Source of the DNA: Mesostigma viride
Taxonomy: Eukaryota > Streptophyta > Mesostigmatophyceae > Mesostigmatales > Mesostigmataceae
DNA length: 64,000 nt
Direction: 5' to 3'
Assembly (NCBI GenBank): GCA_009746045.1
Contig: RPFO01000080.1
Location: 5,593,205 to 5,657,204 of the forward strand
This document shows, one piece after another, positions 8,915-54,200 of the stretch. The notes beneath the pieces were generated by a model. That model did not search any database, was not told the origin of the DNA, and saw only the letters and a list, made by a program, of their open reading frames with translations. The position numbers and the translations under genes are program-made. The number at the start of each line of letters is the position of its first letter. The stretch's first letter is position 1.

Positions 8915-9200
8915 TGTCCTAGAGATATACTCAATTGGCTGTAAGCCCTGACCCTGATCCTGGAGAAGGACGCCCCTATAGCTACCTTACTAGCATCTGT
9001 AGCTACAACAAAGGGTTTAGTAGTATCCGGTAGGATGAGTACAGGAGGGGAAAGGAGTAGGGATTTTAGACACTGAAAAGCCGACTGACATTCACTACTC
9101 CAAACAAAGGGGATATCCTTCTTTAATAAATGATTAATAGGGGCTGCTATAGTTGCGAAACGCGGGATAAAACGCCTATAGTAAGAAGCAATTCCTAGAA
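8915..9200 (-). pseudogene. Reverse transcriptase connection and RNase H start (frame-shifted)
   Basis: A frame with no start of its own links the RT ORF to the RNase H ORF. It reads FLGIASYYRRFIPRFA, then PFVWSSECQSAF and FVVATDAS, the normal RT thumb/connection and the first RNase H aspartate. One-base shifts near 9200 and 8980 isolate it from both neighbours. Confidence 0.85.
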
Positions 9201-11221: not shown

Positions 11222-11953
11222 CTACATAGGAGTTCTCCTCCTCAGGGGTAAGGATAATATTATTAATACGGGAACGGGTAGGAAGAGAAGGGTGGTGAAG
11301 AAATCTGCTACACGCAAGAGATGCTGGCGCACATGCTTGAGGGGCAGATCAGTAAAACGGTAGGCAGAGAACTGGCGCTTGACTTCACGTAATAAAGGTC
11401 TACTGAGGCCTTGGAGGAAGCGAGCACGTACTTCTGCACCCGACAAATCCCTAATTCGTACCATCTGAGCATCAAACTCTTTCATATACTCCTTAAATGA
11501 TTTAGTACCCTGCTGCAAGGTACCAAAGGCTAATCTATCCTGCCAATCTGAATCAGGAGGGACTAAATGGTTCTCTAAACGCTTAAACAATTCTGCTACA
11601 GAGTTAGGGTAGGCATGAGAGGCCAAAGACTCACACTGAATGAGGTTAGCAAGCTCAGGAGTAATGCAGGTTGTAAGATAGTGAGGAACTAATACAGCAT
11701 CAGAGAGACGCCATCTATTATGATTCTGCCACGACTCTGTGTTCTGGGTAAGCAACATAATAAAGGTGAAAAACTGTTGAGGGGTAGACTTGACATCCAG
11801 CTTGGGAAGGTTAGCAAAGAGGGGAAGAGCAGGGGGCTTAGGGGGATTAGAAGAGTCAGTTTTTCCCATAGGGCCACTATCTTCCACTGCTACATAAGCG
11901 GGATAGAAGGAAGGAAGAGGAAAAGTCTTGGGTAGGGGTCTAGAAGGGGCCAC
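11222..11953 (-). pseudogene. Ty3/gypsy Gag capsid core
   Basis: The frame holds a retrotransposon Gag domain: LDVKSTPQQFFTFIML, W-rich helix NHNRWRLSDAVLVPHYL, FKRLENHLVPP, FKEYMKEFDAQMVRIRDLSGAEVRARFLQGL. These are the usual helices that form the virus-like particle. The C-terminus runs out of frame before the zinc knuckle. The N-terminus is joined by a frameshift to the frame at 11890-12586. Confidence 0.82.
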
Positions 11954-29945: not shown

Positions 29946-32335
29946 GAGAGACCACGAGGGACCATTCCACCCCCTGGCAGCATCCACCCTCCCAATTGAT
30001 GGACCTGCACGACCCCACTTTGCCCACATGATGGGCTAGTGTGGGGGAAGCCTCCCTTCAAGTTTCAGGCCAATCCAAGGTCATTTGGATATTTTAGGAC
30101 CATGGCCCATCCCTAACGGTGGGCACGTGCTAGCGCGCACAAGGGACGATGCCACCCCCTGGCAGCAGTTACTCCCTCAAATGATGGACCTGCACGACCC
30201 CACTTTGCCCACATGATGGGATAGTGTGGGGGAAGGCTCCCTCCAAGTTTCAGGCCAATCCAAGCCCATTTGGATATTTTAGGACCATGACCCACCCCTA
30301 ACGGCGGGCACGTGCTAGCGCGCACGAGGGACCATGCGACCCCCTGGCAGTTGCCACTCCCCCAAATGATTGACCTGCACGATCCCACTTTGCCCACATG
30401 ATGGGCTAGTGTGGGGGAAGCCTCCCTCCAAGTTTCAGGCCAATCCAAGGTCATTTGGATATTTGAGACCCATGGCCCAACCCTAACGGGGGGCACGTGC
30501 TAGCGCGCACAAGGGACCATGCGACCCCCTGGCAGTTGCCAACCCCCCAAATCATTGACCTGCACGACCCCACTTTGCCCACATGATAAGATAGTGTGGG
30601 GGAAGCCTCCCTCCAAGTTTCAGGCCAATCCAAGGCCATTTGGATATTTTAGACCCATGGCCCACCCCTAACGGGGGGCACGTGCTAGCGCGCACGAGGG
30701 ACCATGCCACCCCCTGGCAGTTGCCAACCCCACAAATCATTGACCTGCACGACCCCACTTTGCCCACATGATAAGATAGTGTGGGGGAAGCCTCCCTCCA
30801 AGTTTCAGGCCAATCCAAGCCCATTTGGATATTTTAGGACCATGACCCACCCCTAACGGGGGGCACGTGCTAGCGCGCACAAGGGACCATGCGACCCCCT
30901 GGCAACATCCACCGCCCCAAATGATGGACCTGCACGCCCCCACTTTGCCCACATGATGGGCTAGTGTGGGGGAAGTTTCCCTCCAAGTTTCAGGCCAATC
31001 CAAGCCCATTTGCATATTTTAGGACCATGGCCCATCCCTAACGGGGGGCACGTGCTAGCGCGCACAAGGGACCATGCGACCCCCTGGCAGCAGCCACCCC
31101 CTCAAATGATGGACCTGCACGACACCACTTTGCCCACATGATGGGGTAGTGTGGGGGAAGTTTCCCTCCAAGTTTCAGGCCAATCCAAGGTCATTTGGAT
31201 ATTTTAGGACCATGGCTCACCCCTAACGGCAGGCACGCGCTAGCGCGCAACAGGGACCATGCGACCCCCTGGCAACATCCACCCCCCCAAAGGATGGACC
31301 TGCACGCCCCCACTTTGCTCACGTGATGGGCTAGTGTGGGGGAAGGCTCCCTCCAAGTTTCAGGCCAATCCAAGCCCATTTGGATATTTTAGGACCATGG
31401 CCCACCCCTAACGGGGGGCACGTGCTAGCGCGCACAAGGGACCATGCGACCCCCTGGCAACATCCACCGTCCCAATTGATGGACCTGCACGACCCCACTT
31501 TGCCCACATGATGGGCTAGTGTGGGGGAAGCCTCCCTCCAAGTTTCAGGCCAATCCAAGCCCATTTGCATATTTTAGGACCATGGCCCATCCCTAACGGG
31601 GGGCACGCGCTAGCGCGCAACAGGGACCATGCGACCCCCTGGCAACATCCACCCCCCCAAATGATGGACCTGCACGACCCCACTTTGCTCACGTGATGGG
31701 GTAGTGTGGGGGAAGCCTCCCTCCAAGTTTCAGGCCAATCCAAGCCCATTTGCATATTTTAGGACCATGGCCCATCCCTAACGGGGGGCACGCGCTAGCG
31801 CGCAACAGGGACCATGCGACCCCCTGGCAACATCCACCCCCCCAAATGATGGACCTGCACGACCCCACTTTGCTCACGTGATGGGGTAGTGTGGGGGAAG
31901 TTTCCCTCCAAGTTTCAGGCCAATCCAAGCCCATTTGGATATTTTAGGACCATGGCCCACCCCTAACGGGGGGCACGCGCTAGCGCGCAACAGGGACCAT
32001 GCGACCCCCTGGCAACATCCACCCCCCCAAAGGATGGACCTGCACGCCCCCACTTTGCTCACGTGATGGGGTAGTGTGGGGAAAGCCTCCCTCCAAGTTT
32101 CAGGCCAATCCAAGCCCATTTGGATATTTTAGGACCATGGCCCACCCCTAACGGGGGGCACGTGCTAGCGCGCACCAGGGAGCATGCGCCCCCCTGGCAG
32201 CAGCCACTCCCCCAAATGATTGACCTGCACGACCCCACTTTGCCCACATGATGGGGTAGTGTGGGGAAAGCCTCCCTCCAAGTTTCAGGCCAATCCAAGG
32301 TGATTTGGATATTTTAGGACCATGGCCCACCCCTA
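29946..32335. repeat. 185-bp satellite, about 13 copies
   Basis: Tandem units of 185 bp with shared GACCCCACTTTGC, AAGTTTCAGGCCAATCCAAG and CTAGCGCGCA. Because 185 is not a multiple of 3, the repeated minus-strand peptides (GLDWPETWRE...) shift frame each unit and are not genes. Units differ by scattered substitutions. 32336-32823 downstream shows nothing recognisable. Confidence 0.95.
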
Positions 32336-32823
32336 AGGCTTTCCCCCAAATATTTACTCACAATCTTATTTTAATTACAAGCTTCTATGTGATGACACAA
32401 TCAGTTAAGAATGATACCAACCACGAATCAATACCCATGGGATTCTATGTGGATGATGCTAGGAAAACCAACGCTTGGCACAGATGCCCCGAATCGTTCT
32501 TCATTCAATCCCCTACAACCATACTAAGCTAGCTATATGCATATCACGATGCAAGTGTCATGATCCTATGCAGTGGGACCAAAACGAGGATGCATTCCAT
32601 CCATAGTGTGTAATCCACGTCGCCGAAGATGCCTCCTCCACTGGCCTGCGCAAGGAACGCGACATACCAAGCAGCGCATTCGAATGGAGTTTAAGAAGTG
32701 AGCGCGCGGCCGTTTAAACGAGTGTTTATTAGTGTGTCCTACACTAATAAAGCATGATAGTTCCAAACTGGCAGTCGACAGGATTACGAACCAGACGTCT
32801 CACGAAATCCACTCACCAAAAGC

Positions 32824-33822
32824 TCACGGATCCGGCGTCACGCGGTAGAGGCACGCGAGCGTCCTGTGCGCAAGCTCGGCCAAGTCGACGCGCCCCGGGC
32901 GCGGGTACGCCGTGTTGATCTGCCGCGCCAACGCGCCATAGGGGTCCACCTCCTCCCATCGCCCTTGGTCCAGGTCAATGGGCCGCAGGTACGCGAGGTG
33001 CTGGGGTTGCCTCTCCACGATGCCGCACAGCTCGGCGGTCACGTGCACCTCCTCGCACTCGCGGCCCACGCGGATGGCCATGCCGAACCTCATGGGAAGG
33101 CCGCGGCCGGCGTAATCCCGCGACTCGACACCAGCTAAGAAGCCAACGACTACCAGGACCCTCGGAACCATGTCGAAGTACCTCCAAGGTACGCACGTCG
33201 TCGAAAGGCAACGACATGGTTCCCACAGCTGCCCGGCGTACTCGCGGCACACCTGCACGATGCGGTCCTCAAAGTCCATACCGTCGGGTGCGATGCCGGC
33301 ACCTATGGGTCGCTGCAACACGCCGTCCACGGGGAACGGTCGCTTGCACGCCCAGTCGCCCTGACGGAGATACGCGTCCTTGAGGTGCCCCATGACGTTC
33401 CAGAGACATATGTTCCCGTCGCCCTGCGCCCCGTAACGCGTCTCTTGGCTCGCACCCAGCAGCCGCATCACCTTGTCACGCTTGTCGGCCGCCTCCTGCA
33501 TCGTGCCGAATGCAAACGCCAGAACAAACTCCAGCAACGCGAGGCCGTCCTCGCAGCGCGGACCGTGCCTGCCGTCATTGTGATTGCATTGCAGCCTGAG
33601 CAGACCGGACTCACCCGGCCGCTGCCCCCATATCATGGCGTGCACCAGCAGCATCAGGATGGCGTCCACCCAGCAGCTGTTCGCATTCCACACGGGCAGG
33701 TTCATGAGGAGCACGGGCAGCATCCTGTGGCCGTACTGCTCGATCAAGCGCAGGAACGCGAGACAGAAGGATGTGGTGGCATCCGATGGCCTCGGCCGTG
33801 GCGCGAACTCGAACGCGCGGTG
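32824..33822 (-). pseudogene. USP-like triple-domain gene, segment III (third peptidase domain and C-terminus)
   Basis: The 3' piece of a gene broken by LTR insertions; stop TGA at 32824. It encodes one domain like ubiquitin/SUMO-specific cysteine peptidases. NANSCWVDAILMLLVH holds the presumed nucleophile (residue ~996 of the reconstructed protein), PQHLAYLRP the histidine (~1221), and GRWEEVDPYG the aspartate (~1239). A cysteine-rich stretch (PCRCLSTTC) sits where USP fingers carry zinc ligands. The NSCWVDxIL block also resembles the LCWLDCIL block of USPL1. The upstream junction at 33817 continues in frame with 36651 once the element at 33823-36650 and one CGGTG copy are removed. Substrate unknown. 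Confidence 0.65.
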
Positions 33823-34353
33823 TGTCAGGATATGCCCCAATATGCCTGACAGTCTTTTAATTGAGTGTGTTAGTTTCGGGTATACCGGAACTTATATGAC
33901 TACTTTCTTCTACATTTTACTAAATATATTAGTTAGCTAAATATCTTAGTTAGCTGACATCCGTACCCTAGTGGTACTGTAACCAGTGGTACTGTAACCA
34001 GTGGTACTGTAGCCGTCTGACAAAATTTGCCTGGCTCCGCGCTACGCGCCGACCCTATGTTCACTAAGTGCTGCCCTGGAGGCGCAATGTCCTTGTACTT
34101 GCATACTAGTGATCTGACGCATCATTTTAGTGTTGATGTAAGCCACCCACTTGTGTGTGGCGGCTGGATGCACTTTAACTTATACCGTAGATTATTTCCA
34201 GATCGACGGATACTGCGACAGTGTGTTTTTCCACTTAATGTTGCCCCTGCAATTGTCATGGCTACCCGTTTGTACGCCGACTCAAAGTCAATATATAAAA
34301 TCAGTAAAGCATTATTCGATCTTTAAGCCTGCCACCTGTCTTACATTTTGACA
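33823..34353 (+). repeat. 5' LTR of the gag-only element
   Basis: 531 bp, identical in appearance to 36120-36650. Contains three copies of AGTGGTACTGTA near 33970-34015 and a TATATAAAAT motif near 34291. Confidence 0.93.
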
Positions 34354-34367
34354 TGGTATCGGAGGGG
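34354..34367 (+). promoter_or_regulatory. Primer-binding site of the gag-only element
   Basis: TGGTATCGGAG directly after the LTR, as expected for complementarity to the 3' end of initiator tRNA-Met, common in copia-type elements. Confidence 0.8.
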
Positions 34368-34666
34368 TGGCCTACTAAATTGCTGAAACTGGTCCGATTT
34401 ATCGGGCAAATTGACTCCCTGAATCCGACGTCGGCACTTTATGCCAGTCGTGCATATCCTAGACGGGCTTCCCTGTATCGAAATTCAAGAACTCCAGTAT
34501 TTAGACGATCGTCTCTACCTCGTATTTGCTGTTCTCAACCATCGTCGCATATTAGTCTTAATCTTTACCATTACGGATTGAGCGTCTCCGGCTTTCTCGG
34601 CTGTCTCCAGATTTTCACCTTGCCGAGACTCGGTTGTGACCAGATTTTAACCTTGCCGAGACAATC

Positions 34667-35742
34667 ATGTCCGCAGCCGCGACAGCAGCAGCTACGAAAG
34701 CGACGAAAGATCTCAACATTCTACAGGCCTGCAAAAATATTACACAGTTCGACGGCCTCGACCCAGTAAAGTGGGATAACACGAAGATTCCTTTTCTGGC
34801 CGTAGTGACAGCATTCGGGATGCTGTCTGTCCTGCTTGGCACCGAGGTCAATGAGGAACGCGACCTGATTCTTTTTGCGGCCCTTTGTCAGTGCCTCGTT
34901 GGACCGGCACTCAAAGTGGCAAACAGTGTTACTCAGAAAACTGGCAGCGTGGCATATCATCGCATCTGTGAAGAATATGAGCATCTCAAACTGCAGATGA
35001 GCAACCGGCGAGCACTACGCCGCAAGCTAAATCGAATGAAGCTGGAACCCGGCGTCACAATGCGGCAATATATAACCGACGGGGAATTAACTTATAACGA
35101 CCTGATTGCCACCGGCGCCAAAATGGCACCCGAGGATCTGGCCGAGAATCTGCTCGCCGGCGTGACCGAGGAGTTGCTACCGTCCCTTGCACAATTGAAC
35201 CTTGGGACGGTATCACCCTACAGGAAACTAAGGCGGCCCTTCTTAAGGCCTGGGACCTTGTGCACGGTAACAAAGATTCCGCGGAGGCCACCGGGGTGTA
35301 TCATACCTCCCACTCTGGACGCGGTGGCCGTGGCACCGGCCGTGGCAGGGGCGTGGCGGTCACAATGGCGGGATCCAGCGGCCCAGCTGCACCCACTGCG
35401 GTCGCACCTCTCATCAGGAGCCCACCTGCTGGTGGAAGTATCCTCACCTACGGAACACTCGCGGCAACACCGGCGGGCCCGCCGCCCACCACACCACCGA
35501 CACCCCGGCGCCCTCCCACGAGGCCCCCGACCTCCCCCCCGGTTTCTGCTTCTAAACGCCTTATCCAGCTCCCCCCGGGACAGGGAACAAGGGGTAGCAG
35601 CCAGCTGGGCCCAGCTAGCACCAGACGTGGGCCCTGGAGCTTTTCAACCTGCACTGCAGCAGGCGACAGCAGCCAGCCCCCCAACCCGTCCTCTGGCCCT
35701 CCTGCATTGCTAGCGGCTAGTCGCCCACCCTGCCAGACGTGA
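34667..35742 (+). pseudogene. Copia-type Gag of the non-autonomous element
   Basis: Starts at ATG 34667. It has the copia Gag core: FDGLDPVKWDNTKIPFLAVV, YHRICEEYEHLKLQ, LEPGVTMRQYI, DLAENLLAGV. One-base shifts near 35240 and 35360 move the frame before a glycine/arginine-rich linker and a CX2CX4HX4C knuckle (35388-35429: C-TH-C-GRTS-H-QEPT-C). Beyond this only proline-rich sequence to about 35740. No Pol domain follows, so the element is non-autonomous. Confidence 0.8.
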
Positions 35743-36119
35743 CAGGTGCAGGTCTTCATGCCAGCAGCCAGCAGTGACCAGTACTGCAGTACCAGCATCA
35801 ACCAGTCAACCTGTGTTCTTTTCTCCTGTGGCGCACTCCCAGGGACACCTGGGGCCACCGGATGTCTTTCCAGGGTCCCAGCATTTTTCCCAGCAACAGC
35901 CGCCACAACCAAGGTTTTCTAGGGTCGCCGGCATTCTCCAAGCGACCGCCACTGTGGCGCACTCCCAGGGACACCTGGGGGCTACAGTCATCAAGTCTCC
36001 TCTCAGCTCCAACCAGATAGCCGTGTAAGGGGGTGCCATGGGAGTGTACCCGGCTATACCCTCACTAGCTATAGGTTTCTCTGAGCAAGGGGGAACAGGC
36101 ACATTGTATGCAAGGGGGG

Positions 36120-36650
36120 TGTCAGGATATGCCCCAATATGCCTGACAGTCTTTTAATTGAGTGTGTTAGTTTCGGGTATACCGGAACTTATATGACTAC
36201 TTTCTTCTACATTTTACTAAATATATTAGTTAGCTAAATATCTTAGTTAGCTGACATCCGTACCCTAGTGGTACTGTAACCAGTGGTACTGTAACCAGTG
36301 GTACTGTAGCCGTCTGACAAAATTTGCCTGGCTCCGCGCTACGCGCCGACCCTATGTTCACTAAGTGCTGCCCTGGAGGCGCAATGTCCTTGTACTTGCA
36401 TACTAGTGATCTGACGCATCATTTTAGTGTTGATGTAAGCCACCCACTTGTGTGTGGCGGCTGGATGCACTTTAACTTATACCGTAGATTATTTCCAGAT
36501 CGACGGATACTGCGACAGTGTGTTTTTCCACTTAATGTTGCCCCTGCAATTGTCATGGCTACCCGTTTGTACGCCGACTCAAAGTCAATATATAAAATCA
36601 GTAAAGCATTATTCGATCTTTAAGCCTGCCACCTGTCTTACATTTTGACA
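36120..36650 (+). repeat. 3' LTR of the gag-only element
   Basis: 531 bp copy of the 5' LTR, preceded by a G-run that can serve as polypurine tract (about 36113-36119) and followed by the CGGTG duplication. Confidence 0.93.
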
Positions 36651-38649
36651 CGGTGCTGCGGCAGCAACTCCTCCTCCTGCGCGACGGCGGACCGCGCCTC
36701 GCCCGATGGTCCCGCCTCGCGCTCGACTGTCTCGTAGGACAGGTCCATGGGCGACGCTTCTTCCCCCCGCATCATGGCATCATCCCGCTCGTCCGGGTCG
36801 ACCACGCATACGCGCGTTCCGACCGGCTGTGACGTTTGCTCGACAGCCGGCCGCGCGGGCGTCCTGGCCGACGAAGCGACGCGCGCCGGTATCGGCAGCG
36901 GCATCGGTAGCGGCAGCGGCAGGACGTCGCTGACACAGTAGCAGCTGGCGATGGCGATCGTCGCCACCTCACCCAAGTCCGGGTCCTGGCACCGCCGAAC
37001 CTTGGCACGCTTGCGATGCGCGTCGACCTCCTCCCAGACCGAGGACGGGCGCGTGCGTCGCAGGACCACGAAGTGGTCTCCGCCATAGTGCAGCAGCATG
37101 CAGCTGAGCCACGCGGTCACACGCGCCTCCCGGCGCTCGTCCCCGATGAGCACGTCCATGACCAACGTCTCGGGAATCCTTGGCGCGGCGGTCTGGACCA
37201 TCCCCGACTCCCCGTACACGATAAACCGCGGCTCGCGCTTGAAAACCTGCTCCTCCTTGTCGCATTCATCTCGCTCGCAATTCCTGCACCGCTCGAAACA
37301 GAAGGCCTCCCTGCACTTGGCCATCATGCGCGTCTTGACGTCCCACTCCTCGGGGCAGTCGGTCAGCAGGATGGGCAGGGGCACCTTGCCGAGATCCTGC
37401 CGGAACTCGCGCACGCACGCGCGCCCGCCATGGAATAGGTCGCAGTCGTCAAAGTGCTGCAGCACCGTGGTCAGGTTGTCAATCGCCTCGGCAAAAGCGC
37501 CGCGCTTTCGTCCATACCTTTCGTCGAGCAGCCTGCGCACCCACTCGCGGAAGCGGTCCATATCGCGCTGGTTGCCCTCCGCGGTCGCGATGTAGTAGCG
37601 CAGCAGCGCAAGCCCGATCTTGCAGTGCTCGCCGTGCCCCTCGCGTGGGTTGCAGCGAAGCGCCTGCAGTCCTGACCGCCCGGCCCGCTGCGTGAGGATC
37701 AGCATAATGAGACCGAGTCCCAGCACGCTGTCCACAGGGCAACTGTTGTCCTCCCCATTTGGAGTCTGCTCGTTGGCGACCAGCATGAGCGTCTCGTACT
37801 TCAACATGAGCTCCTCGAACGTGAAACACGCGCGGCACGAACACTTGGAACTACCGCTGTGGCCGCCGGCCGGGAACAAAGAGCCCAGCGGCGCGGGCGC
37901 CGGCGCGGTCGGCTCGCTTCCGCGCCCGCTGGAGGGCGCCGGACGCGCCGCCTCGTCCGTCGCGCGACGAGCTGGCGCCGCCGCCTCCCCTTGCTCGCCA
38001 TCCGCAGCCCTGGCCTCCCGGCGCGAACGACGTTGCTGCTCCCGGCCGGAATGCAAGCCCCCGACCTCGCTGAACAGCCCGCGGAAAAACTCGGCGCGAG
38101 CCTCTTGCACCTCGGCGGGCAAACCGGGTTCCGCCGCGAGCGCAGCTATGTCCTCGTCCTCGGCGGGAGGGGGCTCGGGGTGCTCGACGCGAGGCTCGGC
38201 TGACCAATCGCCCGGTGGCACGTTGCGCGGATTACCAGGGGGCCGCGCCACGACGCGCGGGCTCTCCGGCAGCACGTGCTCGGCCGGCTGGGAAACCGGG
38301 CGCACGTCGTAGACGCACAAGACCAACGCGTGAGGCAGCGCGTCCACGACGGTCGCGGGCGCGGAGACGGCCTCGACCGGATCCACCACCTGCCACAGGC
38401 CGGCCGCGGCATCGACGGCGCGGCAGAAAACAAAGTGCTTGTCGGCGCGCTGCTCCACAAACCCGCGCAGCCGCGCGACCACGGCGACCTCGGCGCCGCT
38501 GTCGCCATCGACCACGGACGCGTCAAAGTAAGAGGGCACGGCGTCGCCACCGCAGGCCCGTACGTCCCGTCCGCCATGGACGAGCACACACGCGGGGAAG
38601 CCGCCGCGCACGTAGCGGTCGCACACGACGGCCCGCCCGTTGCAGCCCG
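36651..38649 (-). pseudogene. USP-like triple-domain gene, segment II (end of domain 1, domain 2)
   Basis: Open throughout. It begins with the C-terminal half of domain 1: CNGRAVVC completing a CxxC...CxxC pair with segment I, then ADKHFVFCR (His ~353) and GLWQVVDP (Asp ~371). A 140-residue acidic/proline-rich linker follows. Domain 2 has GEDNSCPVDSVLGLG (Cys ~585), FERCRNCERDEC, YGGDHFVVLR (His ~807) and SVWEEVDAH (Asp ~824). Cys-to-Asp spacing is 239 residues against 243 in domain 3. A proline-rich linker leads to EEELLPQH, which continues in frame as RAFEFAP at 33817. Frame at the upstream end joins 46664 exactly. Confidence 0.68.
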
Positions 38650-39345
38650 AGTTAACGTTCCTAGCAAACGCAATGTGAAGGATATGGTTGCAATGCAGCA
38701 ATGTGTGAATATGGTTGGAAACGGAGCTTTGTTAAAATCGGATAATGTTACAGCGCTCACACACTTGAGGCTTGTACACGCGCTTGCCAAGTCAAGGCAC
38801 AACACGTGAGGCGGGCTCGCAAGAGATGCCCATTTGGCACTGGCCTATTGTTTATATACTTGTGCACTGTGCTTGCTAGTCCTGAGCAGCCTAGGAGGCC
38901 TGCTCAGTAATAACACCCCCGGTACAGTATTCACTACCTGTACAGCGCCCAGCTCCTATACAGTAGGTCTGCCATACAGGCACAGTGACCACAGAGCACA
39001 GTCCACAGTGACTATTGCATCTGCACCTAGAAGTCCAGGACTAAGCCTGCGGTACCAACAGACCACAGGTTAAGGTTCCTATTTCCTGCGTACGACGTAT
39101 TAATCCAATACCGTCGTAGGTACAGCACCTAATTCCTGTCAGCCCAGGAATTACTGTCGACCCCATATGTCGTCGGCAAATATTCACGTCCGACTTAGAA
39201 GAACAGCCGGCTCGCGCTCGCGCGCGACCGGGAAGTCGGAACGCCATAACTTTCTTGATACTTGTCGGAATGAACTCGTTCCGGTGCCGCTGGAATCGCA
39301 GAGATATGCCGAATCAGGATCACGCCAATGCGCTTGGCGTTAACT
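38650..39345 (-). repeat. 3' LTR of copia element 1
   Basis: 696 bp with inverted ends AGTTAACG/CGTTAACT. Second copy at 45969-46663 (695 bp). Confidence 0.93.
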
Positions 39346-40092
39346 CCAATCCTTTCTTTTCTTGAGCTGTAGCAGCTCACACAAGTCTACATACAAACAC
39401 ACACAATGGGTACTGGATATCCTCCCCGACTACAAGTCACAACCCGCTGGGCATGACAGTCAGCTTGGATTCCTTATTATATGTACATAGCACCCATACT
39501 GGCTCAGGAGCACAAACAAATTACAATGAGTCCCTATCCCTTCACGGGAGGCTCGTTGTGTTACCCATGTACAAGAGGTTGGCCAACTGTGGCAGCCCAT
39601 AGGTGTTCAGCTAAGAACTTGAGAAGTATGTACAACCTTCAGGACCTTAGGCGAAACCCCACAGATCACCCACAACAGCTCATCAGAAAACATTGCTGAC
39701 CCCCAGACGGGAGTCGGCGCCGGTCTGCTGCCCCTTATCGAACCAGACACAACATCTACGCGAAGCACATGCAAAACACAAGCTCCCATACTCGTTCCAA
39801 CCGTGGAAAATCAGGGGACCTGTCGCCACCTCACCAGCATGGTGGATGGGTCAGCCAGTCCGTGAAACTCCGCCTTAAGACGGCACCAGGGAATCGAACC
39901 CCGCCCACAAACCACAGATCTGGGGAAACCTCAGACTGAGATGAAAACCCCAGATAGACATCTCTCCATCAGAGACAATGTCAGACATTCCCACACCAGA
40001 GACATGTCTCACCCCTCAAGGTGTGCTCAGGATTATGTACAATCAAGCTCCCAGCCTGATATCCAGAGACTTAAGCACCCAGCTCTCAGCTT

Positions 40093-40428
40093 TTAGACAG
40101 ATAGACCGACTTGACAGTCAGCATTCATGAGCTTCCTCAGTACATTGTACTGGGCTGGGGCCTTGTGTGGCAGCTTTGTCAATGCATCAGCAGGGTTCTC
40201 CTCGCCAGGGATATGCTTCAAGTCAACCAAACTGGCCAACTCCTTCAGCAACAAATAATCCAGGTCCCGGCTCTGGCCAGCTGCTTGTGAACAAACTGGA
40301 CCATACCCATGCTGTCTGTTAGCAACAACGTCTCCATCTGCAAGGTCCAAGGGGTAACTGAAGCCAGCTCCAGCATTAACTCCTTTATGTACAGGCTGGA
40401 CTGGATCCCCTCGCATATGGCCCTGCAT
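40093..40428 (-). pseudogene. Copia 1 RNase H C-terminal tail (frame-shifted)
   Basis: Contains LDLKHIPGEENPADALTK-type sequence (HIPGEENPADALTKLP), the usual end of copia RNase H, ending at 40093. It continues the Pol ORF after a one-base shift near 40260. Confidence 0.85.
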
Positions 40429-43400
40429 TCTGCCACATCTGAACTGATACAGACCCTCTTCTGCAGTCTGCTGTACCAGCTGAACAAACTTGCCCTGCTC
40501 TGATAAAAAGCAAACAGAGCAGCAGATCTCCCCCTGACCTTGGTAACCTGGCGAGCATCCATGGAACTGTCAACAAAGATCTCCAAGGTGATAGGCTGGG
40601 TAAAGTCAATCCCAGACAAAATCAGATCAGGGGTACTCTCCACCAACCGGGCTATGACTCGAGGCTTCTCATCCTCAAGCACCTCATCAGGCATTCTGCT
40701 ATGGACCATCAAAGACGGACCACAGATGCTGGCAAACCAGGCCCACATGCCTCTCAACTCAGGTCCTGCAGCCTGGGTGATCTTCTCTGGCAAGGCCTTC
40801 ACAATGGTCTGTTTATAATCTCCTCCAGCCTGAAGCCTGATACTCCACTCCCCGTCCCTCCTGAACAGGGTAGCCTGCATTCCACAGAACACTACAGGCT
40901 TGTTGGGCTCCTGCCACAGCTCCTTGCCCAGTGAAAACTTGCCACTGATGACAGGAATAAACTTCTTCAGCCAGGTCGTGGGGGCTAGCAAATGCAGATC
41001 ATCTCCATGCAAACTAGCATACACTGGCAGACCCTCCCATTGGGCCAGCAGCAAACAGGGATCAACTGAAGACACTCTCAAGCCACACTCACTGATCAGA
41101 GCTTCCTGCAGCGTGAGTCTCCAGATGATTGGGCTCGACCTGAGTCCTTCCAGGCCCTTCAGAATAACCAGGAATTGTTGATGCAGCTCCAGCTTCCAGA
41201 TGGCAGGCACCTCAACACAGTAAGGCTCATCCTGCTTCCACACCCTCCTGGCCACTTCTGGATCAGATTTTAAAAATGCCCTCTTGAAGTCCAGCAGCAC
41301 TGATGACATAGCTGCTCCCCTGTTCAGCAACCCCACGTAGAGACATAGCAAAATTCTCCATGTGTCGTGTAGCATCCCTGGCGTGTATAGCTCCTCTCCT
41401 GGCAGACTCCCCGTGCCGTGATACTCATTCAGGACAGGCCTGACATGGGGCACTGATACCTCATCCACAACCTTCCTCTTCAGCACAAATCTCAAAGCAA
41501 GCTTCCTTGATGCTGGGGGACGTCTGTCTGTTGGTGCAGCACACTCAAACTGCAACCACTCCTCCAATGCCTTGGAGAAGGCGAGCTTCCAAGCCTCAAA
41601 CAAAGTAGGCGAGCTCATCTCTTGGACCAGCTGGTCATATGTCAAAGGAGAGTGTGCAGCAAGGCTCCTGTGAGTTATGCCAATACTGCTGGGGTGCAAC
41701 ACAGCTGGAATCACCAAACTGGCCGCTGGGGGCACCTCCCCTTCATCCCATTTTACACCCTTGACCGGCTTGGCCCTGCACCTGACTGGAAATGTTGTCC
41801 TGAAATTTTCTAGGGGAATCATCCCCCAGCCATCTCTTCTCAGAGCTGTAGCTCTGATAGAAATCCCAGGATTGCCCAGAAAATTCTGACCCAAAATCAC
41901 AGGGCCATCATAGTCCTCTAGGACAAGGAAGGTCACATCCACACCCATGACAGGGGCAGTAACCTCTCCCAACACCCTTAGATGCGTCCTACCACTGAAA
42001 TCAGACACCCAGGGGCAACTTGGTTCTCCGACCAGCAGTTCTCCTGTATGCTGAGGTCCCATGACAGAAACCTGTGCATTGGTATCTATCTCCATGGCAG
42101 CTACCTCAGGTTCATCCAACTGGACAAGCTTGGACACCTTAGGCTCCTTCTTGGCTCTTTGCAAAGCCTGTACAATATCTGATAGACGCACACCCCTAGG
42201 CCTGGTGTCGGGCCGTTCCGGAGGTGCAGCCTGTCCGCCTGCTTGCCCAACCACCGTATGTGAAGGTACCCCAGGGGCCGGGCCAGGGTCACCCTGAGGG
42301 CTCGATACAGCTGTAGCACCCTGATCAGGAAGCTCCACGTCACCCCCGCCTTGTACACCAGCGGGCACCTGGAAGAGGTCTCCTTGATTACCTCCCCGGG
42401 GACGGATCTTTGACCAGGACAGACGGTGCACTGCTTGGGAGCCATCAATGGCCACCCAGCACTTATGGCCAGCGGCTTCTACTCGGGTCACCACCCCATC
42501 ATGCCAGCTGCCACGTTTCCCTGGAAAGCTTGGTTCCTTCCACACAACAACCTGTTGTCCAACGTTAGGTTCTAGGACACTCCAGCCCTTGTCTTTCTGC
42601 CTCAGCTTGAGGAACTTGGCCTCTAGCTTCTCCTTCCATGCCTGCTCAGCATCAGCTGGCAGCATCCTGGTATGCAGCATAAGAGGATTGATGGCAATGT
42701 CACCAAAGAACATGGGAGTCCTCAGGTTCAGCCTGTCCTCCACAGAACGTAGCCATGCAGATGTCACAATGGCAGATGACGTCCTTGGAATCCTCTCCAC
42801 CAGCAGCACAGTCTTGATCTCTTGGATGGCTCTCTCCACCACCCCTTGCTGGCCGTGGCTCTCCCTGGGTGTAATCAGCAACTCTGGAAACTCTGGCAGG
42901 TTCTCACAGCACTCAAACTGAATGTCACACTGCAACAACTCCAACCCAGGGTACCTGCTCCTTGTCAACTTCAGAGCAGCAATCAATGTAGGCTTCTCCA
43001 TGTCAGGCAGGATCTCTAGGGTCTTGTACTTGGTATATCTGTCCACTGCCACCAGCAGCTTCAAACCCCTGATTCTCTGAATATCTACCTGCACATGGCC
43101 TGGCTGCAAAATAGGAGTCCTGGCATGAGACTGCTTGGGCTTTCTAGCAACTAGCCTGCACTTGCAAGCTTGAGCAACCTGTTGGCAGATGGAGTACAAC
43201 TCACTTCCTCCCAGCCGTCTAGCAACTTGCAAAGACTGAGCTGCATGGCCAAACATGGTATGCAACCTTGAGGCAATGTCATACAAGAGAGAAAACCTTT
43301 TATTGTCATTATTAGCACTCAAGGTATGTACAGATCCCTTATGTACAGGAGGCACCAGGGTCGTGCCTGTCAGACTGTCTCCAGCCCTATCCTCATCCTG

Positions 43401-43649
43401 ACCATCCTGTGCCAGTCCTGCACGGTCAGAATGCTTCTGAGATCCACCTGGGTCCACATCACCAGGTCCTACCTCAGGCTCAGCACCGCCATGGCGGGCA
43501 CGTTGGCGAGTAACCACTGCAGCTACAGCTGGCATACTCTCTGTGGTAACCAAGCTTGCCCCATCGTGTCCAATAGGCTCTTTCACTAGAGCATGGGGCT
43601 GCCCCTCACTGCTGTCACTAGCAGCTTCATTACACACCCCTGGGGGCAC
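40245..43649 (-). CDS. Copia 1 Pol: integrase, protease-like, RT, RNase H
   Basis: 1,134 codons, open upstream to the Gag stop in the same frame; the start at 43649 is only GTG, so Pol is probably made as Gag-Pol. Integrase: zinc finger RLHTMFGH and CKC (~130-164), then D189 (QVDIQRI), D242 (QCDIQF), E272 (VERAIQEIK), and an SH3-like tail (WHDGVVTRVE ~383). Protease-like: EIDTNAQVSVM (~521-530) and PVILGQNFL (~583-591). RT: LLDFKRAFLK (~786) and SLHGDDLHL (~879), with His-Gly replacing the usual Tyr-Val before DD. RNase H: FVDSSMDARQ, DVAECRAI, LTDSMGM. Only one protease-like block is found, and it lies after integrase. Confidence 0.9.
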   Translation of the reverse strand: MPPGVCNEAASDSSEGQPHALVKEPIGHDGASLVTTESMPAVAAVVTRQRARHGGAEPEVGPGDVDPGGSQKHSDRAGLAQDGQDEDRAGDSLTGTTLVPPVHKGSVHTLSANNDNKRFSLLYDIASRLHTMFGHAAQSLQVARRLGGSELYSICQQVAQACKCRLVARKPKQSHARTPILQPGHVQVDIQRIRGLKLLVAVDRYTKYKTLEILPDMEKPTLIAALKLTRSRYPGLELLQCDIQFECCENLPEFPELLITPRESHGQQGVVERAIQEIKTVLLVERIPRTSSAIVTSAWLRSVEDRLNLRTPMFFGDIAINPLMLHTRMLPADAEQAWKEKLEAKFLKLRQKDKGWSVLEPNVGQQVVVWKEPSFPGKRGSWHDGVVTRVEAAGHKCWVAIDGSQAVHRLSWSKIRPRGGNQGDLFQVPAGVQGGGDVELPDQGATAVSSPQGDPGPAPGVPSHTVVGQAGGQAAPPERPDTRPRGVRLSDIVQALQRAKKEPKVSKLVQLDEPEVAAMEIDTNAQVSVMGPQHTGELLVGEPSCPWVSDFSGRTHLRVLGEVTAPVMGVDVTFLVLEDYDGPVILGQNFLGNPGISIRATALRRDGWGMIPLENFRTTFPVRCRAKPVKGVKWDEGEVPPAASLVIPAVLHPSSIGITHRSLAAHSPLTYDQLVQEMSSPTLFEAWKLAFSKALEEWLQFECAAPTDRRPPASRKLALRFVLKRKVVDEVSVPHVRPVLNEYHGTGSLPGEELYTPGMLHDTWRILLCLYVGLLNRGAAMSSVLLDFKRAFLKSDPEVARRVWKQDEPYCVEVPAIWKLELHQQFLVILKGLEGLRSSPIIWRLTLQEALISECGLRVSSVDPCLLLAQWEGLPVYASLHGDDLHLLAPTTWLKKFIPVISGKFSLGKELWQEPNKPVVFCGMQATLFRRDGEWSIRLQAGGDYKQTIVKALPEKITQAAGPELRGMWAWFASICGPSLMVHSRMPDEVLEDEKPRVIARLVESTPDLILSGIDFTQPITLEIFVDSSMDARQVTKVRGRSAALFAFYQSRASLFSWYSRLQKRVCISSDVAECRAICEGIQSSLYIKELMLELASVTPWTLQMETLLLTDSMGMVQFVHKQLARAGTWIICC

Positions 43650-43682
43650 CCTCCAGGGTTCAGGGATGTGTGCAGGCTCAAG

Positions 43683-44860
43683 TCAATGATCAGCAGCCTT
43701 GCCCTTGCCCTTGTCCTGGGATGGACCAGCCTTGTCCTTGCTGCCACCCTGAGCTGGCTTGCTCTGACCTTCCTGCCTCAGGTACGAGGGACACTCATTC
43801 CTGAAGTGACCCTTCCCCTGGCAGAAATAACATTCCACCTGACTGATGTCCCGTGAGGTCCCACTGCTGGGCCCAGCCTTGGGAGGACCACCCACCCTCT
43901 TGAAGTCAAACTGGGACTGTGGATGTCCCGACTTCGGCGGGGTCCCCCGTCCAGCCCTTCTGTCACGCCCCCTCCTGGACCTTCCTCGACCCCTTGAAGA
44001 GGTCTCAGGCCCTCTCGAGGGCGCTGGGCCCCCGTGGCCCGATCCCCTCATGGACTTAACCGTGGGTTCAGTGGCCTCCTCATCACCCTGACGAGGGCGC
44101 TTACCACCCACGTACTTGCCGCTGAAACACTCATACAACTGGTCCGTCATGGCTGCCCAGCCATGGACCTGTCGCATGTGGATGGTCACATTATCCATGG
44201 TGACCGGATCCAGCTGCAGCGACTTGAGAAAGTCGCCCATGGCCATCCGATCTGCGACGAAGAAGCCCTTGGCCATGGCGTCCTCCCTCAGCTTGACGAA
44301 GTCTTCAAAGGCGTGGACCACTAGCTGCCCCTTGATGGGCTTGTAGTCCAGGTATTCTTGCTTCAGGTGGGACCCATCTATGGTCCTCTTGTCACTCAGG
44401 AACGACCTGAGTCGCGTCATAAACGCCGCCCAGGTGTCCCCCGCCGCGTGTCGCTCCCGAACAAACTTGAACAGCCGCCTCGCCGACTGCCGTATGTAGG
44501 CACTAGACGCCAGGATGCGAAGCTTGTCACCGTTGTATATCTCCGTGTACAAGTTCATGTCCTCTAACATCCTCTCAGCATCCCGGGGCTGCCAATTGTC
44601 CTTGATGGACTGAAACTGGCCTAGCACCGCGTACCCCTCAGCAACGTTGGTCGCTTAGGCGCCGCTTGATCTGCGGCTGGCGCGTGCTGCCCGCCCTGCG
44701 ATCCTTGGCTCTGATTATCTGGCACCTCAGCCTGGTCTCCCAGCGCCTGGCCGTCCCCGCGTCCATCGCGTCCACCGCGTCCATCGCGTCCATCCATCCC
44801 AGCGCCGCGCCGCGCGAAGCCCATAAAGCCCGCTTGTTGGTTGATAGCTCCATCCTCCAT
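43683..44860 (-). pseudogene. Copia 1 Gag
   Basis: Starts at ATG 44860 (MEDGAINQQ), glycine/aspartate-rich at first. A one-base shift near 44640 leads into the capsid region (SIKDNWQPRDAERMLEDMN, FKFVRERHAAGDTWAAF, GSHLKQEYLDYKPIKGQLV). An RG-rich segment and a CX2CX4HX4C knuckle (43791-43832: C-YF-C-QGKG-H-FRNE-C) follow. It ends KGKAADH then TGA (43683-43685). The next codons continue in the same frame into Pol, so the stop may be read through. Confidence 0.85.
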
Positions 44861-45968
44861 GATGGCCTCTGTTCAGATCTGCTACAGCCAGCCAAGTGGC
44901 CAAGCAGCAATTAAAGCAATATAAGCTACTGAACAAGAAAGGAAAGTGCCAAGTGTTACCACTCAGGCAAGACCACCACGGCTGGCCCCAGGCGCGTCCT
45001 GGTTCTCCTTGTCGCTGTCGTCGTCGCTGTCGCTCACCACAATCAGCTCTGGTACCCTGCTACCTGCTGCGCCGTCGTCGACCCGCTGTCGGCCCGCGAT
45101 GACTGAATCGTCACCGTTGGTATAGTAGACAGGTGACAACCCGTCGTTGGCACCCGCGGATTGTATCTTGGCACCTCGTGGTCGCCAAGTGTCTCGTCGC
45201 CTAGCCCAGCGACACCCCCTGCTCCCACCTCAAGGTCACTATCGTACCCAAGAGGTGCAAACTCTTCCCAACGCGTCACACGAACGCGAAGGGGGGGCAG
45301 TTCCTGAAAAGGAACTCTTACTCGCTCCGGAAACCTGCCGACTCTTGTGCGCGCTGTCCTCCGGTGATGGCTTCCGCTGTCGCCCCGACCTCTGCAAGCC
45401 GCCTGTGATGCTCCGCTCCGCGTCGTTCACGCCTAACTGGCCCCGCTGCAACACCCTCGTCGCCGATGACGCCTGCGAAAGCACGTGGTACTCCCGCACC
45501 CGCTACTGTCGGTACAAACTCGTGTCGCCCTGCGCCAGCTGCCTCCGCAACCTCGCCTCGCCTTGCCGCCAACTCCGTCCGCACTCGCTCAGCTACTGCT
45601 GTAATCACCGTCTGGATGCCGACCAACCGTGAAGCTCCTGCTCAAGGTCGTCGATGCTCCGGTGCTCCGGAATGACGATGGTTTGTACGTGTCGCAGAAT
45701 TCGCTCCCAATCTTCGACCTGGTCGTCGACGAATTGCACGAAGCTGCGATTACAGGCGGACGATCTGCAAGCAATAAAGATAGATCCCGAACGACACGAC
45801 GTAATTCAGGAGAAATCGAACCCCCAGCAGACTGCCGAAACCGGAAATCCTGCTGCCGTTGTTCTCCTGCACCATTCACCACCGGACGAGCTCCTCGCGT
45901 CGTCAACGCTGCACACCGCAACCGGCAACGACCCTCCTGGCCGTTCCGCTGAGACTGGTTGTAATTTG
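44861..45968 (-). other. Copia 1 5' leader
   Basis: About 1.1 kb between the 5' LTR and Gag. A frame at 45318-45626 (VITAVAERVRTELAARRGEV) looks helical and could be an N-terminal Gag part, but frames are broken. A diverged copy lies at 51272-52264 because of the assembly duplication. Confidence 0.5.
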
Positions 45969-46663
45969 AGTTAACGTTCCTAGCAAACGCAATGTGAAGG
46001 ATATGGTTGCAATGCAGCAATGTGTGAATATGGTTGGAAACGGAGCTTTGTTAAAATCGGATAATGTTACAGCGCTCACACACTTGAGGCTTGTACACGC
46101 GCTTGCCAAGTCAAGGCACAACACGTGAGGCGGGCTCGCAAGAGATGCCCAAATGGCACTGGCCTATTGTTTATATACTTGTGCACTGTGCTTGCTAGTC
46201 CTGAGCAACCTAAGAGGTATGCTCAGTAATAACACCCCGGTACAGTATTCACTACCTGTACAGCGCCCAGCTCCTATACAGTAGGTCTGCCATACAGGCA
46301 CAGTGACCACAGAGCACAGTCCACAGTGACTATTGCATCTGCACCTAGAAGTCCAGGACTAAGCCTGCGGTACCAACAGACCACAGGTTAAGGTTCCTAT
46401 TTCCTGCGTACGACGTATTAATCCAATACCGTCGTAGGTACAGCACCTAATTCCTGTCAGCCCAGGAATTACTGTCGACCCCATATGTCGTCGGCAAATA
46501 TTCACGTCCGACTTAGAAGAACAGCCGGCTCGCGCTCGCGCGCGACCGGGAAGTCGGAACGCCATAACTTTCTTGATACTTGTCGGAATGAACTCGTTCC
46601 GGTGCCGCTGGAATCGCAGAGATATGCCGAATCAGGATCACGCCAATGCGCTTGGCGTTAACT
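45969..46663 (-). repeat. 5' LTR of copia element 1
   Basis: 695 bp; ends AGTTAACG/CGTTAACT. Differs from the 3' LTR at several sites (for example near 46144 and 46205). A third, noisy copy at about 52265-52925 is part of the assembly duplication. Confidence 0.93.
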
Positions 46664-47512
46664 GCCCGCGCAGGCCGCGTCCTGCAGGCGGCGCCTGAGC
46701 AACGACCTCGTGCGCTCCTCGAGCGTGCCCGGCGCGGCCGACACGTCGACCACATCCACCACGCACTCGCCCGTCTCGCCCTGGAGGCCACACGAGCCGC
46801 AGCAGGGCGCTCGCTCGACGAGCGCGGGCCCCCCCACGTGCAACAGCGCGCGCCGCAACACGGACATCAAGGCCCCGACACCGGAGAGATGCACCCCCGG
46901 CTGTGCCAAGTCACACAGTCGCCGAAACTCGTCGCGAGCATCGCACATCGGCTGCACGCTCCCGCGCGCACGCGCCAGCATGCACGACAGCATCGCCCCC
47001 GCCACGCGGAAATCCAACGCGCCGCCGGGGGAGTCCTGCGGTGCGACAGGGGGTGTCACGAGGCCGAGACCGCCGGACTCGGCGCGCATCTGCGTCAGCG
47101 ACAGCTTTGCGAACACGACCTCGAGCGCCGTGTCATGGGCGCCGCTCCCGTTGGACGATCGGAACGTGGCGTCGCGGGGTCGCAGAACCACGCCCCTGCA
47201 CGCGGCTCGCATGTCATCGAGGACCTCCCGCTCTTCCAACGTGACGGGCGCGACAGCCGCGGCAGCGAGAGTGGCTTCCTCTCGAGACACGGCCGACACA
47301 TCGGAGTTGGGGCGTGGGGACGCGACGGTGGCAGCACCCGCCGCCTCATCCGACACGCTCGCGCGGTCCAAAGGCTGCGCGACCGCCTCGGGTAGCTCTT
47401 CACCGTCCGCATGCTCGACAGCACCGCCCAACTCGGTCACAAATGGGCACTCCTCCCGCTCCGCGTCCTGCACGCAGGGAACGTGGTGAGCCGGACAAAC
47501 AGTTGCACGCAT
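46664..47512 (-). pseudogene. USP-like triple-domain gene, segment I (N-terminus, first half of domain 1)
   Basis: Starts at ATG 47512 (MRATVCPAHH), whose A is shared with the stop of the preceding ORF (TGATG). After ~100 low-complexity residues comes a block aligning with the catalytic region of domains 2 and 3: SSNGSGAHDTALEVVF, where NSC of the others is GSG, so the nucleophile is missing (position ~124). ESGG and a conserved helical region follow, then CCGSC and CAGC (the second completed across the insertion). Spacing from the lost Cys to Asp 371 is 247, like the 239 and 243 of the other domains. Domain 1 is probably a non-catalytic paralogue. Confidence 0.6.
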
Positions 47513-51271: not shown

Positions 51272-54200
51272 CTGAACAGAAAGGAAATGCCAGCGTTACC
51301 ACTCAGCAGACACACGGCTGGCCCAGGCGCGTGCCTGTTCCCTTGTCGTGTCGTCGCGCTGTCGCTTCACCACAATCAGTCTCGGCACCCTGCTACCCGC
51401 TGCGGCCGTTCGTCGACCCGCTGTCGGCCGCCGATTGACTGAATCGTCCACCGTTGTTAGTAGACAGGTGACAACCCGTCCGTTGGGCACCGCCGCGGGA
51501 TTGTTTTGGCAACCTCGTGGTCGTCCAAGTGTCTCGTCGCCTACGCCCAGCGACACCCCCTGTCCACTCAAGGTCACTATCTACCCAAGAGTTGCAAACT
51601 CTTCCAGGTACGACGAACGGAAGGGTTGGGGAGTTCCTGAAAAGGAACCCTTTGCTCGCTCCGGTAAACTTGCCGCTCCTTGTGCGCGCTTGTCCTACTG
51701 TGATGCTTCCGCTGTCGGCCCAGACCTTTGAAGCGCCTTGATGCTCGCTCGCGTGTTCCGCTAACTGCCGCTGCAACACCCGCGCGCGATGACGCCTGCG
51801 AAAGTTATGGTATACCGCACAGTTGCTGCGGGTACAAACTCGTGTCGCACTGGCAGCTGCTCCGCTAACCTCACGCTTGCGCCAACTCCGCACGCACTCG
51901 CTCAGCTTACTGCTTAATACCGTCTGGATTGCCGACCAGACCGTGAAGCTCGCTCAGAGAGTTGTCGATGCTCCGGTGCTCCGGAATGCGATGGTTTGTG
52001 AGTGCGCAGGAATATCGCTCCCAATTTTCGACCTGGTCGTCGTACGGAATTGCGAAGCTGCGATTAACACGACGATTGCAAGCATAAGATAGATCCCGAA
52101 GACACGACGCAATTAGCGAAATCGAACCCCCCAGCAGCTGCCGAAGACCGGGAATCCTGCTGCCTTTGTGTCTTCCTGCACATTCACCACCCCCCTGACG
52201 AATCCTCGCGCTCGTCAACGTGCCCACCGCACCGGCAAGACCTTCCTGGGCCGTTCGCTGAGACTGTTGTAATTTGGTTACTTCCTGCAACGCAATGGAA
52301 GAGTATTGTTTGCAATGCAGGAATGTGTGTTATGGTTGGAACGAGTTTGTTAAAAATCGATAATGTACAGCGCTCACAACTTGAGGCTTGTACACGCGCT
52401 TGCCAAGTACAAGGCACACACGTGAGGCGGGCTCGCAAGACCTGCAAATGGCACTGGCTTTTAATACTTGTGCACTGTGCTTGCTAGTCCTGGGCAACCT
52501 AAGAGGTATTGCTCAGTATAACCCGGTACAGTATTCATACCTGGTACAGCGCCCCAGCTCCTATCAGGTAGGTCTGCCATACAGCACAGTGACCACAGAC
52601 ACAGTCACAGTGACTTTGCATCTGAAGCCTAGAAGGTCCAGGACTAAGCTGCGTACAACAGACCACAGGTTAAGTTCCTATTTCGCGTAGACGTATTATC
52701 CTACCGTCTAGGTACAGCACCTATTCGTCAGCCCTAGATTTACTGTCGACCCATCGTATGTCGGTCGCAAAATTCACGTCCGACTTAGAGAACGCCGTGC
52801 CTTCGCGCTCGGCGCGACCGGGAGTCGGCGCCATAACTTTCTTTTAATCTTGTCGGAATGAATCGTTCGGTGGCGGAATCGCAGAGATATGCCGAATCAG
52901 GTACGCCAATGCGCTTGGCGTTAACTGCCGCGCATTGCCGCGGTCTCTTGCGGGGCGCTCTGAGCAACGACCTCGGTGCGCTCGTCGGCGTAGCCGCGTG
53001 CGGCCGAACGCTCGACCACATTCCACCACGCACTCGCCGTTCGCTGTAGGCCACACGAGCGCAGCAGGGCGCTTCGCTGACGAGCGCGGGCCCCGCCCCG
53101 TGGCCAGCGCGCGCCGCAACACGACATCAAGAGCCCCGACACGGAGAGATGCACCCCCGCTGTGCAAGTACACAGTCCCGAATCGTGGAGCATCGCACAT
53201 CGGCTGCACGCTCCGCGCGCACGCCAGATGCCGACAGCATCGCCCCCGCCCGGAAATCCAACGCGCCGCGGTGGAGTCCTGGTGCGAGGGGTTGTACGAG
53301 CCGAGCCTGTCGATCGGCGCGCATGGTCAGCGACAGCTTTGCAACACGACCTCGAGCGCTGTTCATGGGCGCGCTCAGTTGGCGATCGGGTGGCGTGCGG
53401 GTCGCGACCACGGCCCTTGCACGCGGTCGATTGGTCATCGAGAGCACTCCCGCTTTTTCCAACGTGACGGGCGCGACAGCTTCGCAGCCGAGAGTGGGCT
53501 TCCTCTCGAGACACGTCCACACATCGGATTGGGCGTGGACGCGACGGTGCACACCGCCGCCTATCGACACGCTCGCGCTTCCAAAGGCTGCGCGACCGCG
53601 GGTAGCTCTTCACCGGTCCGCATGCTCGACAGCACGCCAATCGGTCAAATGCGGCACTCCTCCCGCTCACGTCCTGCCGCAGGGAAGTGTGAAGGGACAA
53701 CAGTTGCCGATAGCAGCGCCGAATACATCTCGCGGACAAAGGCACGCCAGGTGAACAAGTCCACAATGGGAGATGCTACCCACAGCGCGGCATCTCACGT
53801 CCATCGCGTCACGCGCCTCGCCCCGCGCAAAACCCGTCCGTTCCGCAGGAACGTGGGTTGGCCATCTCGCATCCCCGCAACCACCATTTGCTCTCCTGCG
53901 GTTGCATCAGAAGAAGGCGAAGATCAACCGTTACATCAACTTACGGTCTTTGCCTCTGAATTAGTTCGTTCTTCTCCGCTCGTCATTAATTCTACGTCGG
54001 CTGGTGGGGTTGTGTTCCACCTCTGCGGCTTCTGTAGATGGCGTCCTTGGCGCTCAGAGGTGGTCGTCTGACCGCAGTAGGTCGGTAGGGAGTGCGGAGG
54101 CTGCATCTGCCTGCCGGGGTCGCTGCTGGGCAGCGATGGTGCAGTTGCGCTGCATTCGGAAGCGCATGCACAGCAGCCCTGCGTTCGGGTTTGCAGGGCT

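What the first reader, a model, noticed from the sequence alone, without database searches (positions are those of the whole stretch)
32824..47512. Triple USP/USPL1-like cysteine-peptidase gene recovered across two LTR insertions
Segments 47512-46664, 38644-36651 and 33817-32824 join in a single frame (1,278 codons) when the two elements and one copy of each 5-bp duplication are removed. Each of three tandem domains has an N-[GS]-x block, a Cys-rich finger, a H-[FL]-x-x block and a W-x-x-[VD]-D block at nearly the same spacing (247, 239 and 243 residues). Three peptidase-like domains in one intronless protein is not an architecture I know. Its low-complexity linkers and neighbouring overlapping ORFs leave open that it belongs to a large mobile or viral element.
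Basis: partly seen in the sequence, partly recalled or inferred. Interest (0 to 1): 0.9.

Follow-up and report, generated by a model that had tools for sequence, protein, structure and literature searches.

The report
Algal Helitron with tandem peptidase-like domains
The interrupted gene is a dead, recombined copy of an accessory gene that sits with Helitron jumping elements in what is probably a green alga; it encodes a row of cysteine-peptidase-like domains, some with and some without the active-site cysteine, which may remove ubiquitin-like tags during transposition or silencing.

Summary
In detail: three pieces of one gene, split by two LTR elements with perfect 5-bp duplications. No insert had to be removed: the same genome holds copies that are contiguous across each insertion point. 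The gene family is multicopy: at least 98 matches to its last domain. In 18 of 28 clusters with two or more matches a Helitron Rep domain lies 7-16 kb upstream on the same strand (0 of 39 single-match clusters), with a PIF1 helicase between in the copies read. So it is an accessory gene of Helitrons.

Three domains is not the family architecture. Other copies read p-a-p-a, p-a-p-p-a or at least a-a (p = active-site Cys missing, a = Cys/His/Asp kept). The window copy is a recombinant of two subfamilies; a second locus shares its junction.

The peptidase reading rests on motif order and a weak, non-robust match to Peptidase_C98/USPL1 (2 of 8 consensus variants). Structure prediction failed. Helitrons with OTU and VTD peptidases are published; our searches showed no USPL1-like tandem one.

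The parts
46664..47512 (-). Piece 1: N-terminal region and first part of pseudo-domain 1 (46664-47230; NGSG where active domains have N-S-C)
   Evidence: 97.6% DNA identity to C1448
36651..38644 (-). Piece 2: rest of pseudo-domain 1 (38297-38644), low-complexity linker, active-type domain 2 (36917-37837)
   Evidence: 98.5% DNA identity to C1448 down to 36673
36917..37837 (-). Active-type domain 2: Cys codon 37739-37741, His 37073-37075, Asp 37022-37024
   Evidence: alignment positions C33, H255, D272; codons checked
32824..33816 (-). Piece 3: last active-type domain (32827-33816) and stop; Cys codon 33673-33675, His 32998-33000, Asp 32944-32946
   Evidence: 94% DNA identity to the last domain of C1673, 99% aa to C723
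36672..36678 (-). Recombination junction between C1448-type and C1673-type sequence, at a short shared GGAG stretch; same junction in C723
   Evidence: place read by eye
33823..36650 (+). Insert A: LTR element with a copia-type gag-like ORF 34667-35713 (PF14223, E 2e-6); duplications 33818-33822 and 36651-36655
38650..46663 (-). Insert B: LTR element with CCHC gag-like ORF 43683-44627 and 1134-codon pol-like ORF 40245-43649; duplications 38645-38649 and 46664-46668
   Evidence: copia-like motif order in the pol-like ORF read by eye
29953..32336 (+). 185-bp tandem array, 12.9 copies, downstream of the gene and in the opposite orientation to it
53061..53531 (-). Second, diverged fragment of the pseudo-domain 1 region (39.5% aa; DNA match 52954-53923, 82%)

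Best explanation
It is a dead copy of an accessory gene of Helitron rolling-circle transposons in what is probably a streptophyte green alga. The gene encodes a row of domains of one family, built like USP/USPL1-type cysteine isopeptidases: catalytic-type domains (Cys, His, Asp, Cys-rich finger) and sister domains that lack the catalytic Cys. Shown: linkage to a Helitron Rep and a PIF1 helicase, multicopy spread, domain variants, recombination, LTR disruption. Inferred: the active domains cleave ubiquitin or SUMO from RepHel or host proteins, protecting the transposition machinery or relieving silencing, while the Cys-less domains bind the tag or chain.
For: Helitron_like_N (E 1.1e-27) at C1448:18256-20010, with HAH and YLNKYINKG motifs (their catalytic meaning is recalled). 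PIF1 (E 1.4e-44) between it and the peptidase gene in C1448; relatives of that PIF1 upstream of the gene in 5 of 6 other fetched stretches (second C1448 copy, C1, C3, C1324, C1673), not in C1106:546001-566000, of which 9,002 of 20,000 bases read N. Of 55 Rep matches 18 lie upstream, same strand, 7-16 kb from a multi-match cluster; about 0.002 per Rep expected by chance. N-x-C, H and W-x-x-V-D are invariant in 8 of 8 non-redundant active-type domains, one of them only about 25% identical to the window's. Peptidase_C98 is the sole Pfam hit of one consensus, E 2.1e-4. Cys-less and active domains show similar constraint between C1 and C1673 (dN/dS 0.415 and 0.428). Precedent: Helentron VTD domains are active deubiquitinases, two in one element (PMC9741609, passages).
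Against: C98 match below its cut-off, absent in 6 of 8 consensus variants and in the single sequences scanned; unrelated families reach E 0.025-0.15 with single sequences (Herpes_heli_pri and IcmF-related in 2 of 8 each). No solved structure matches. Models at pLDDT 34.5 and 40.1 are useless. Other dN/dS values are 0.48-0.81, and 0.998 for domain 2 of C1448 against C1 (pS 0.44). L044 has F-S-C instead of N-S-C. The gene may be a neighbour rather than part of the element: Helitron ends were not found. 10 of 28 multi-match clusters, the window's included, and all 39 single-match ones have no Rep upstream on the same strand within 25 kb.
Confidence: 0.7

Rival explanations
1. The domains are peptidases that act in cis: they cut a RepHel polyprotein or free RepHel from other products, as some viral proteases do.
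For: Same strand, downstream of Rep and PIF1.
Against: Cys-less domains and rows are not needed for that; the published Helitron VTD peptidases tested are deubiquitinases (PMC9741609, passages). No cleavage site is known.
Confidence: 0.12
2. A host gene of the alga was captured and amplified; it has no role in transposition.
For: Helitrons capture genes (PMC6431247, passages); 39 single-match clusters have no Rep upstream within 25 kb.
Against: Kept with Rep and PIF1 in diverged subfamilies (PIF1 51-53% identity). No host single-copy parent was seen, but none was searched for by profile.
Confidence: 0.13
3. Not a peptidase: a zinc-binding module whose Cys, His and Asp serve structure.
For: Several other Cys are equally invariant; no fold evidence.
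Against: Motif order, spacing and the weak C98 match fit C-H-D peptidases; sister domains that lost this Cys stay open and constrained.
Confidence: 0.15
4. The three-domain gene is the native form and the longer copies are derived.
For: Two loci carry the same junction.
Against: The two sides of the junction differ in divergence from their nearest relatives (dS 0.02-0.04 against 0.14), and the last domains of the two subfamilies are far apart (dS 0.85, C1 against C1673). No recognisable domain 1 was found in the C723 stretch read.
Confidence: 0.05

Closest known systems
Helitron/Helentron elements with VTD deubiquitinase domains (zebrafish DrT1, DrT2; PMC9741609, passages)
   Same: Rolling-circle transposon with one or two accessory ubiquitin-peptidase domains
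   Different: VTDs use an Asp-x-His motif; here the order is Cys...His...Asp with a Cys-rich finger. Up to four or five tandem domains, Cys-less ones among them; probably a green alga
Helentron OTU-like cysteine proteases (PMC4067079, passages)
   Same: Accessory cysteine-protease gene of a rolling-circle element
   Different: No OTU match and no AP endonuclease in the ORFs scanned
USPL1 / peptidase C98 (PF15499; PMC8983731, passages)
   Same: C-H-D order; His to Asp 17 and 18 residues apart in the window domains, 16 in USPL1; Cys-rich finger; weak profile match
   Different: Host SUMO isopeptidase; the match here is below cut-off and not robust
USP (UCH, PF00443) deubiquitinases
   Same: Same triad order
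   Different: No Pfam match in any sequence or consensus scanned

Membership tests
Helitron (element) | Rep domain with HUH motif and catalytic Tyr pair | tested here: met
   PF14214 E 1.1e-27; HAH and YLNKY located. Met for C1448; 18 of 28 multi-match clusters have a Rep match upstream. The window copy has no Rep or PIF1 match
Helitron (element) | PIF1-type helicase with the Rep | tested here: met
   that Rep and PIF1 form one transcript is not shown
Helitron (element) | 5'-TC, 3' hairpin and CTRR, insertion at A-T without duplication (recalled) | not tested
Helentron | AP endonuclease, with OTU or VTD domain | tested here: inconclusive
   no such Pfam hit in the ORFs scanned; the elements were not read end to end
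Peptidase C98 (USPL1) | Profile match over the curated cut-off | tested here: not met
   21.5 and 16.5 bits against 27, for 2 of 8 consensus variants; none for single sequences; 0 matches in the genome at E 10
Peptidase C98 (USPL1) | C-H-D catalytic order | tested here: met
   8 of 8 non-redundant active-type domains; the 3 other non-redundant domains lack the N-S-C block
Peptidase C98 / USP | Papain-like palm-thumb-fingers fold | tested here: inconclusive
   pLDDT 34.5 and 40.1
USP (PF00443) | UCH profile match | tested here: not met
   the 32 UCH matches in the genome lie at other places than the 98
Peptidase C98 (USPL1) | SUMO cleavage | not testable with these tools
   needs protein

The most novel reading that the evidence does not exclude
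A third, independently acquired class of ubiquitin/SUMO-type isopeptidase in rolling-circle transposons, here evolved into rows of catalytic and Cys-less domains that are swapped between Helitron subfamilies, so that the transposon carries a tunable tag-reading and tag-removing machine against host silencing.
Probability: 0.4. Interest if true: 0.72.

Novelty: new variant of a known kind. Interest (0 to 1): 0.55.

Why it matters
Helitrons of animals carry OTU-like and VTD peptidases. If algal Helitrons carry yet another, USPL1-like class, non-homologous tag-removing enzymes were recruited repeatedly, which points to a shared need of rolling-circle transposition and makes it testable. The mixed rows of catalytic and Cys-less domains are a natural series for studying how pseudo-enzymes arise.

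Tried and rejected
Pfam and NCBIfam on single peptidase pieces: nothing convincing. PDB by sequence and profile: nothing relevant. Pattern-based scans of viral and prokaryote contigs found no relative, so a viral origin has no support here; such scans can miss distant ones. AlphaFold2 with two window rows, twice: unusable, so no fold search was run. The large protein database could not be searched. The exploratory pattern gave nothing used beyond the genome's size and contig count. Native triple-active enzyme: rejected (see full report). Genome UCH hits were fetched in part (L046, L047) and not used.

Full report
Observation. The three pieces are open in one reading direction and end at the LTR borders with perfect 5-bp duplications. 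The same genome contains uninterrupted relatives: C1448 runs through the insert B point and C723 through the insert A point, each with a 5-bp overlap that equals the duplication in length and place. The continuity of the gene is therefore shown by natural copies and nothing was excised.

Organism. The genome is 439.9 Mb in 2,243 contigs with psaA/psaB-type genes. The call gave no organism names for the best PDB matches of psaB; that several of the first entries are moss or land-plant photosystem I is recalled. Size and number are close to the published Mesostigma viride assembly, 441.8 Mb in 2,363 scaffolds (PMC6947507, passages). Against the same assembly: its longest contig is 2.0 Mb, while contig C1 here has 14.3 Mb. 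I take it as a streptophyte alga, perhaps Mesostigma; this is inference.

Family. Piece 3 has at least 98 matches in the genome (a lower bound). Grouped within 12 kb on one strand they form 67 clusters, 28 with two or more matches and 39 with one. One of the 28, C1635, joins two distant-family matches about 10 kb apart. Two copies are single long stop-to-stop frames: C1448 (1,709 codons) and C1 (1,609; it begins inside the array). Their domain order is Cys-less, active, Cys-less, active. C1673 and C3 show Cys-less, active, Cys-less, Cys-less, active over two overlapping frames, with the frame change inside the third domain; C1435 shows at least active, active. Orders were read by eye from translations, alignment and profile hits.

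Window copy. Domains 1-2 are 97.6-98.5% identical in DNA to C1448, while the last domain is 94% identical to C1673, C3 and C1324 and unlike that of C1448. The change lies at about 36672-36678, at a short shared GGAG stretch, and C723 has the same junction. So the 'triple' gene is a recombinant with fewer Cys-less domains than either source. C1 and C1448 share a last domain that is far more alike (pS 0.046) than their domains 1-3 (pS 0.44-0.48), which suggests a second exchange. The window copy is cut by two LTR elements, and no Rep or PIF1 match lies in the window.

Helitron. Upstream of the C1448 copy on the same strand are a PIF1 helicase and a Helitron Rep. PIF1 relatives (51-53% identity) precede the gene in C1, C3, C1324 and C1673, and a 99% one in the second C1448 copy; none was found in the C1106:546001 stretch, nearly half of which reads N. 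Of 55 Rep matches in the genome, 18 lie upstream on the same strand, 7-16 kb from a multi-match cluster (18 of 28), and none by a single-match cluster (0 of 39). Two more Reps lie near a cluster in another arrangement (C1106, opposite strand; C481, downstream) and 35 have none within 25 kb.

Arrays. In C1448 185-bp tandem arrays lie upstream of Rep, between Rep and PIF1, between PIF1 and the peptidase gene, and downstream. A 20-base word of the unit occurs 415 times in the genome (one mismatch allowed; reversed control 0). Of the first 100 places listed, 73 lie within 25 kb of one of 32 clusters given to the script: 48 of 48 upstream are in the gene's orientation; downstream 18 are opposite and 7 the same. 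The 7 equal in number the seven C481 places, where a Rep lies on that side. 27 places lie elsewhere. The array is thus largely a feature of these elements, direct on one side and inverted on the other.

Domain. A profile of the active domains found 51 domains in fetched loci (E 1e-5, over 240 positions), 11 after removing those over 85% alike: 8 active-type and 3 Cys-less. In the 8, N-x-C, H and W-x-x-V-D are invariant. L044, dropped there as a near copy of L043, has F-S-C. Peptidase_C98 was hit at E 2.1e-4 and 0.0071, same model stretch (167-252 and 167-257), in 2 of 8 active-type consensus variants; not in the other 6, nor in one Cys-less consensus or 3 shuffles. USPL1's triad is Cys236-His456-Asp472 and its finger binds Zn through four Cys (PMC8983731, passages). 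Structure prediction from the two window domains failed.

Constraint. dN/dS is 0.12-0.24 for window pieces against their nearest copies (four pairs), 0.415 and 0.428 for Cys-less domain 1 and active domain 2 of C1 against C1673, and 0.48-0.998 in the other seven pairs. So both kinds of domain look kept, but the values are loose and some pairs are near saturation.

Mechanism. Helentron VTD domains cleave ubiquitin chains, and their authors suggest protection of proteins needed for transposition (PMC9741609, passages). By analogy the active-type domains here most likely remove ubiquitin or SUMO, and the Cys-less ones bind or position the tag. All that concerns the alga in this paragraph is inference.

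Novelty. Searches for Helitron with cysteine protease/OTU/Pif1 (1 paper), ubiquitin-specific/green alga (0), RepHel/peptidase/Chlamydomonas (6, listing), USPL1 (0), SUMO/protease (30 papers, 15 listed), deubiquitinase (5) and peptidase domain/tandem (1). Of these papers passages were read in PMC4067079, PMC9741609 and PMC6431247 only; they name OTU-like and VTD domains, and in the passages seen no USPL1-like class. Subscription papers and Repbase were not searched.

Noticed in passing
window 29953-32336; L045, L031, L032: 185-bp arrays accompany the Helitron copies, in gene orientation upstream and mostly inverted downstream; role unknown.
   Followed up: partly
L043, L044; about 30 matches in all at 25-28% identity: A second family: in the two copies read, one such domain behind a low-complexity N-terminus. 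No Rep upstream within 25 kb of these matches; the carrier is unknown.
   Followed up: partly
window 38650-46663: LTR element with AGTTAAC...GTTAACT termini instead of TG...CA and a diverged pol-like ORF that Pfam does not recognise.
   Followed up: partly
window 33823-36650: Short LTR element in which only a copia-type gag-like ORF was found: a non-autonomous candidate.
   Followed up: no
L025, L028, L030 (C1673, C3, C1324): Three copies have a 998-codon frame followed by another frame; in C1673 and C3 the change falls inside the third domain. Inherited or programmed is open.
   Followed up: no
window 7364-11953 and 49805-51217: Gypsy-type gag-pol pieces and a copia-type RT piece.
   Followed up: no
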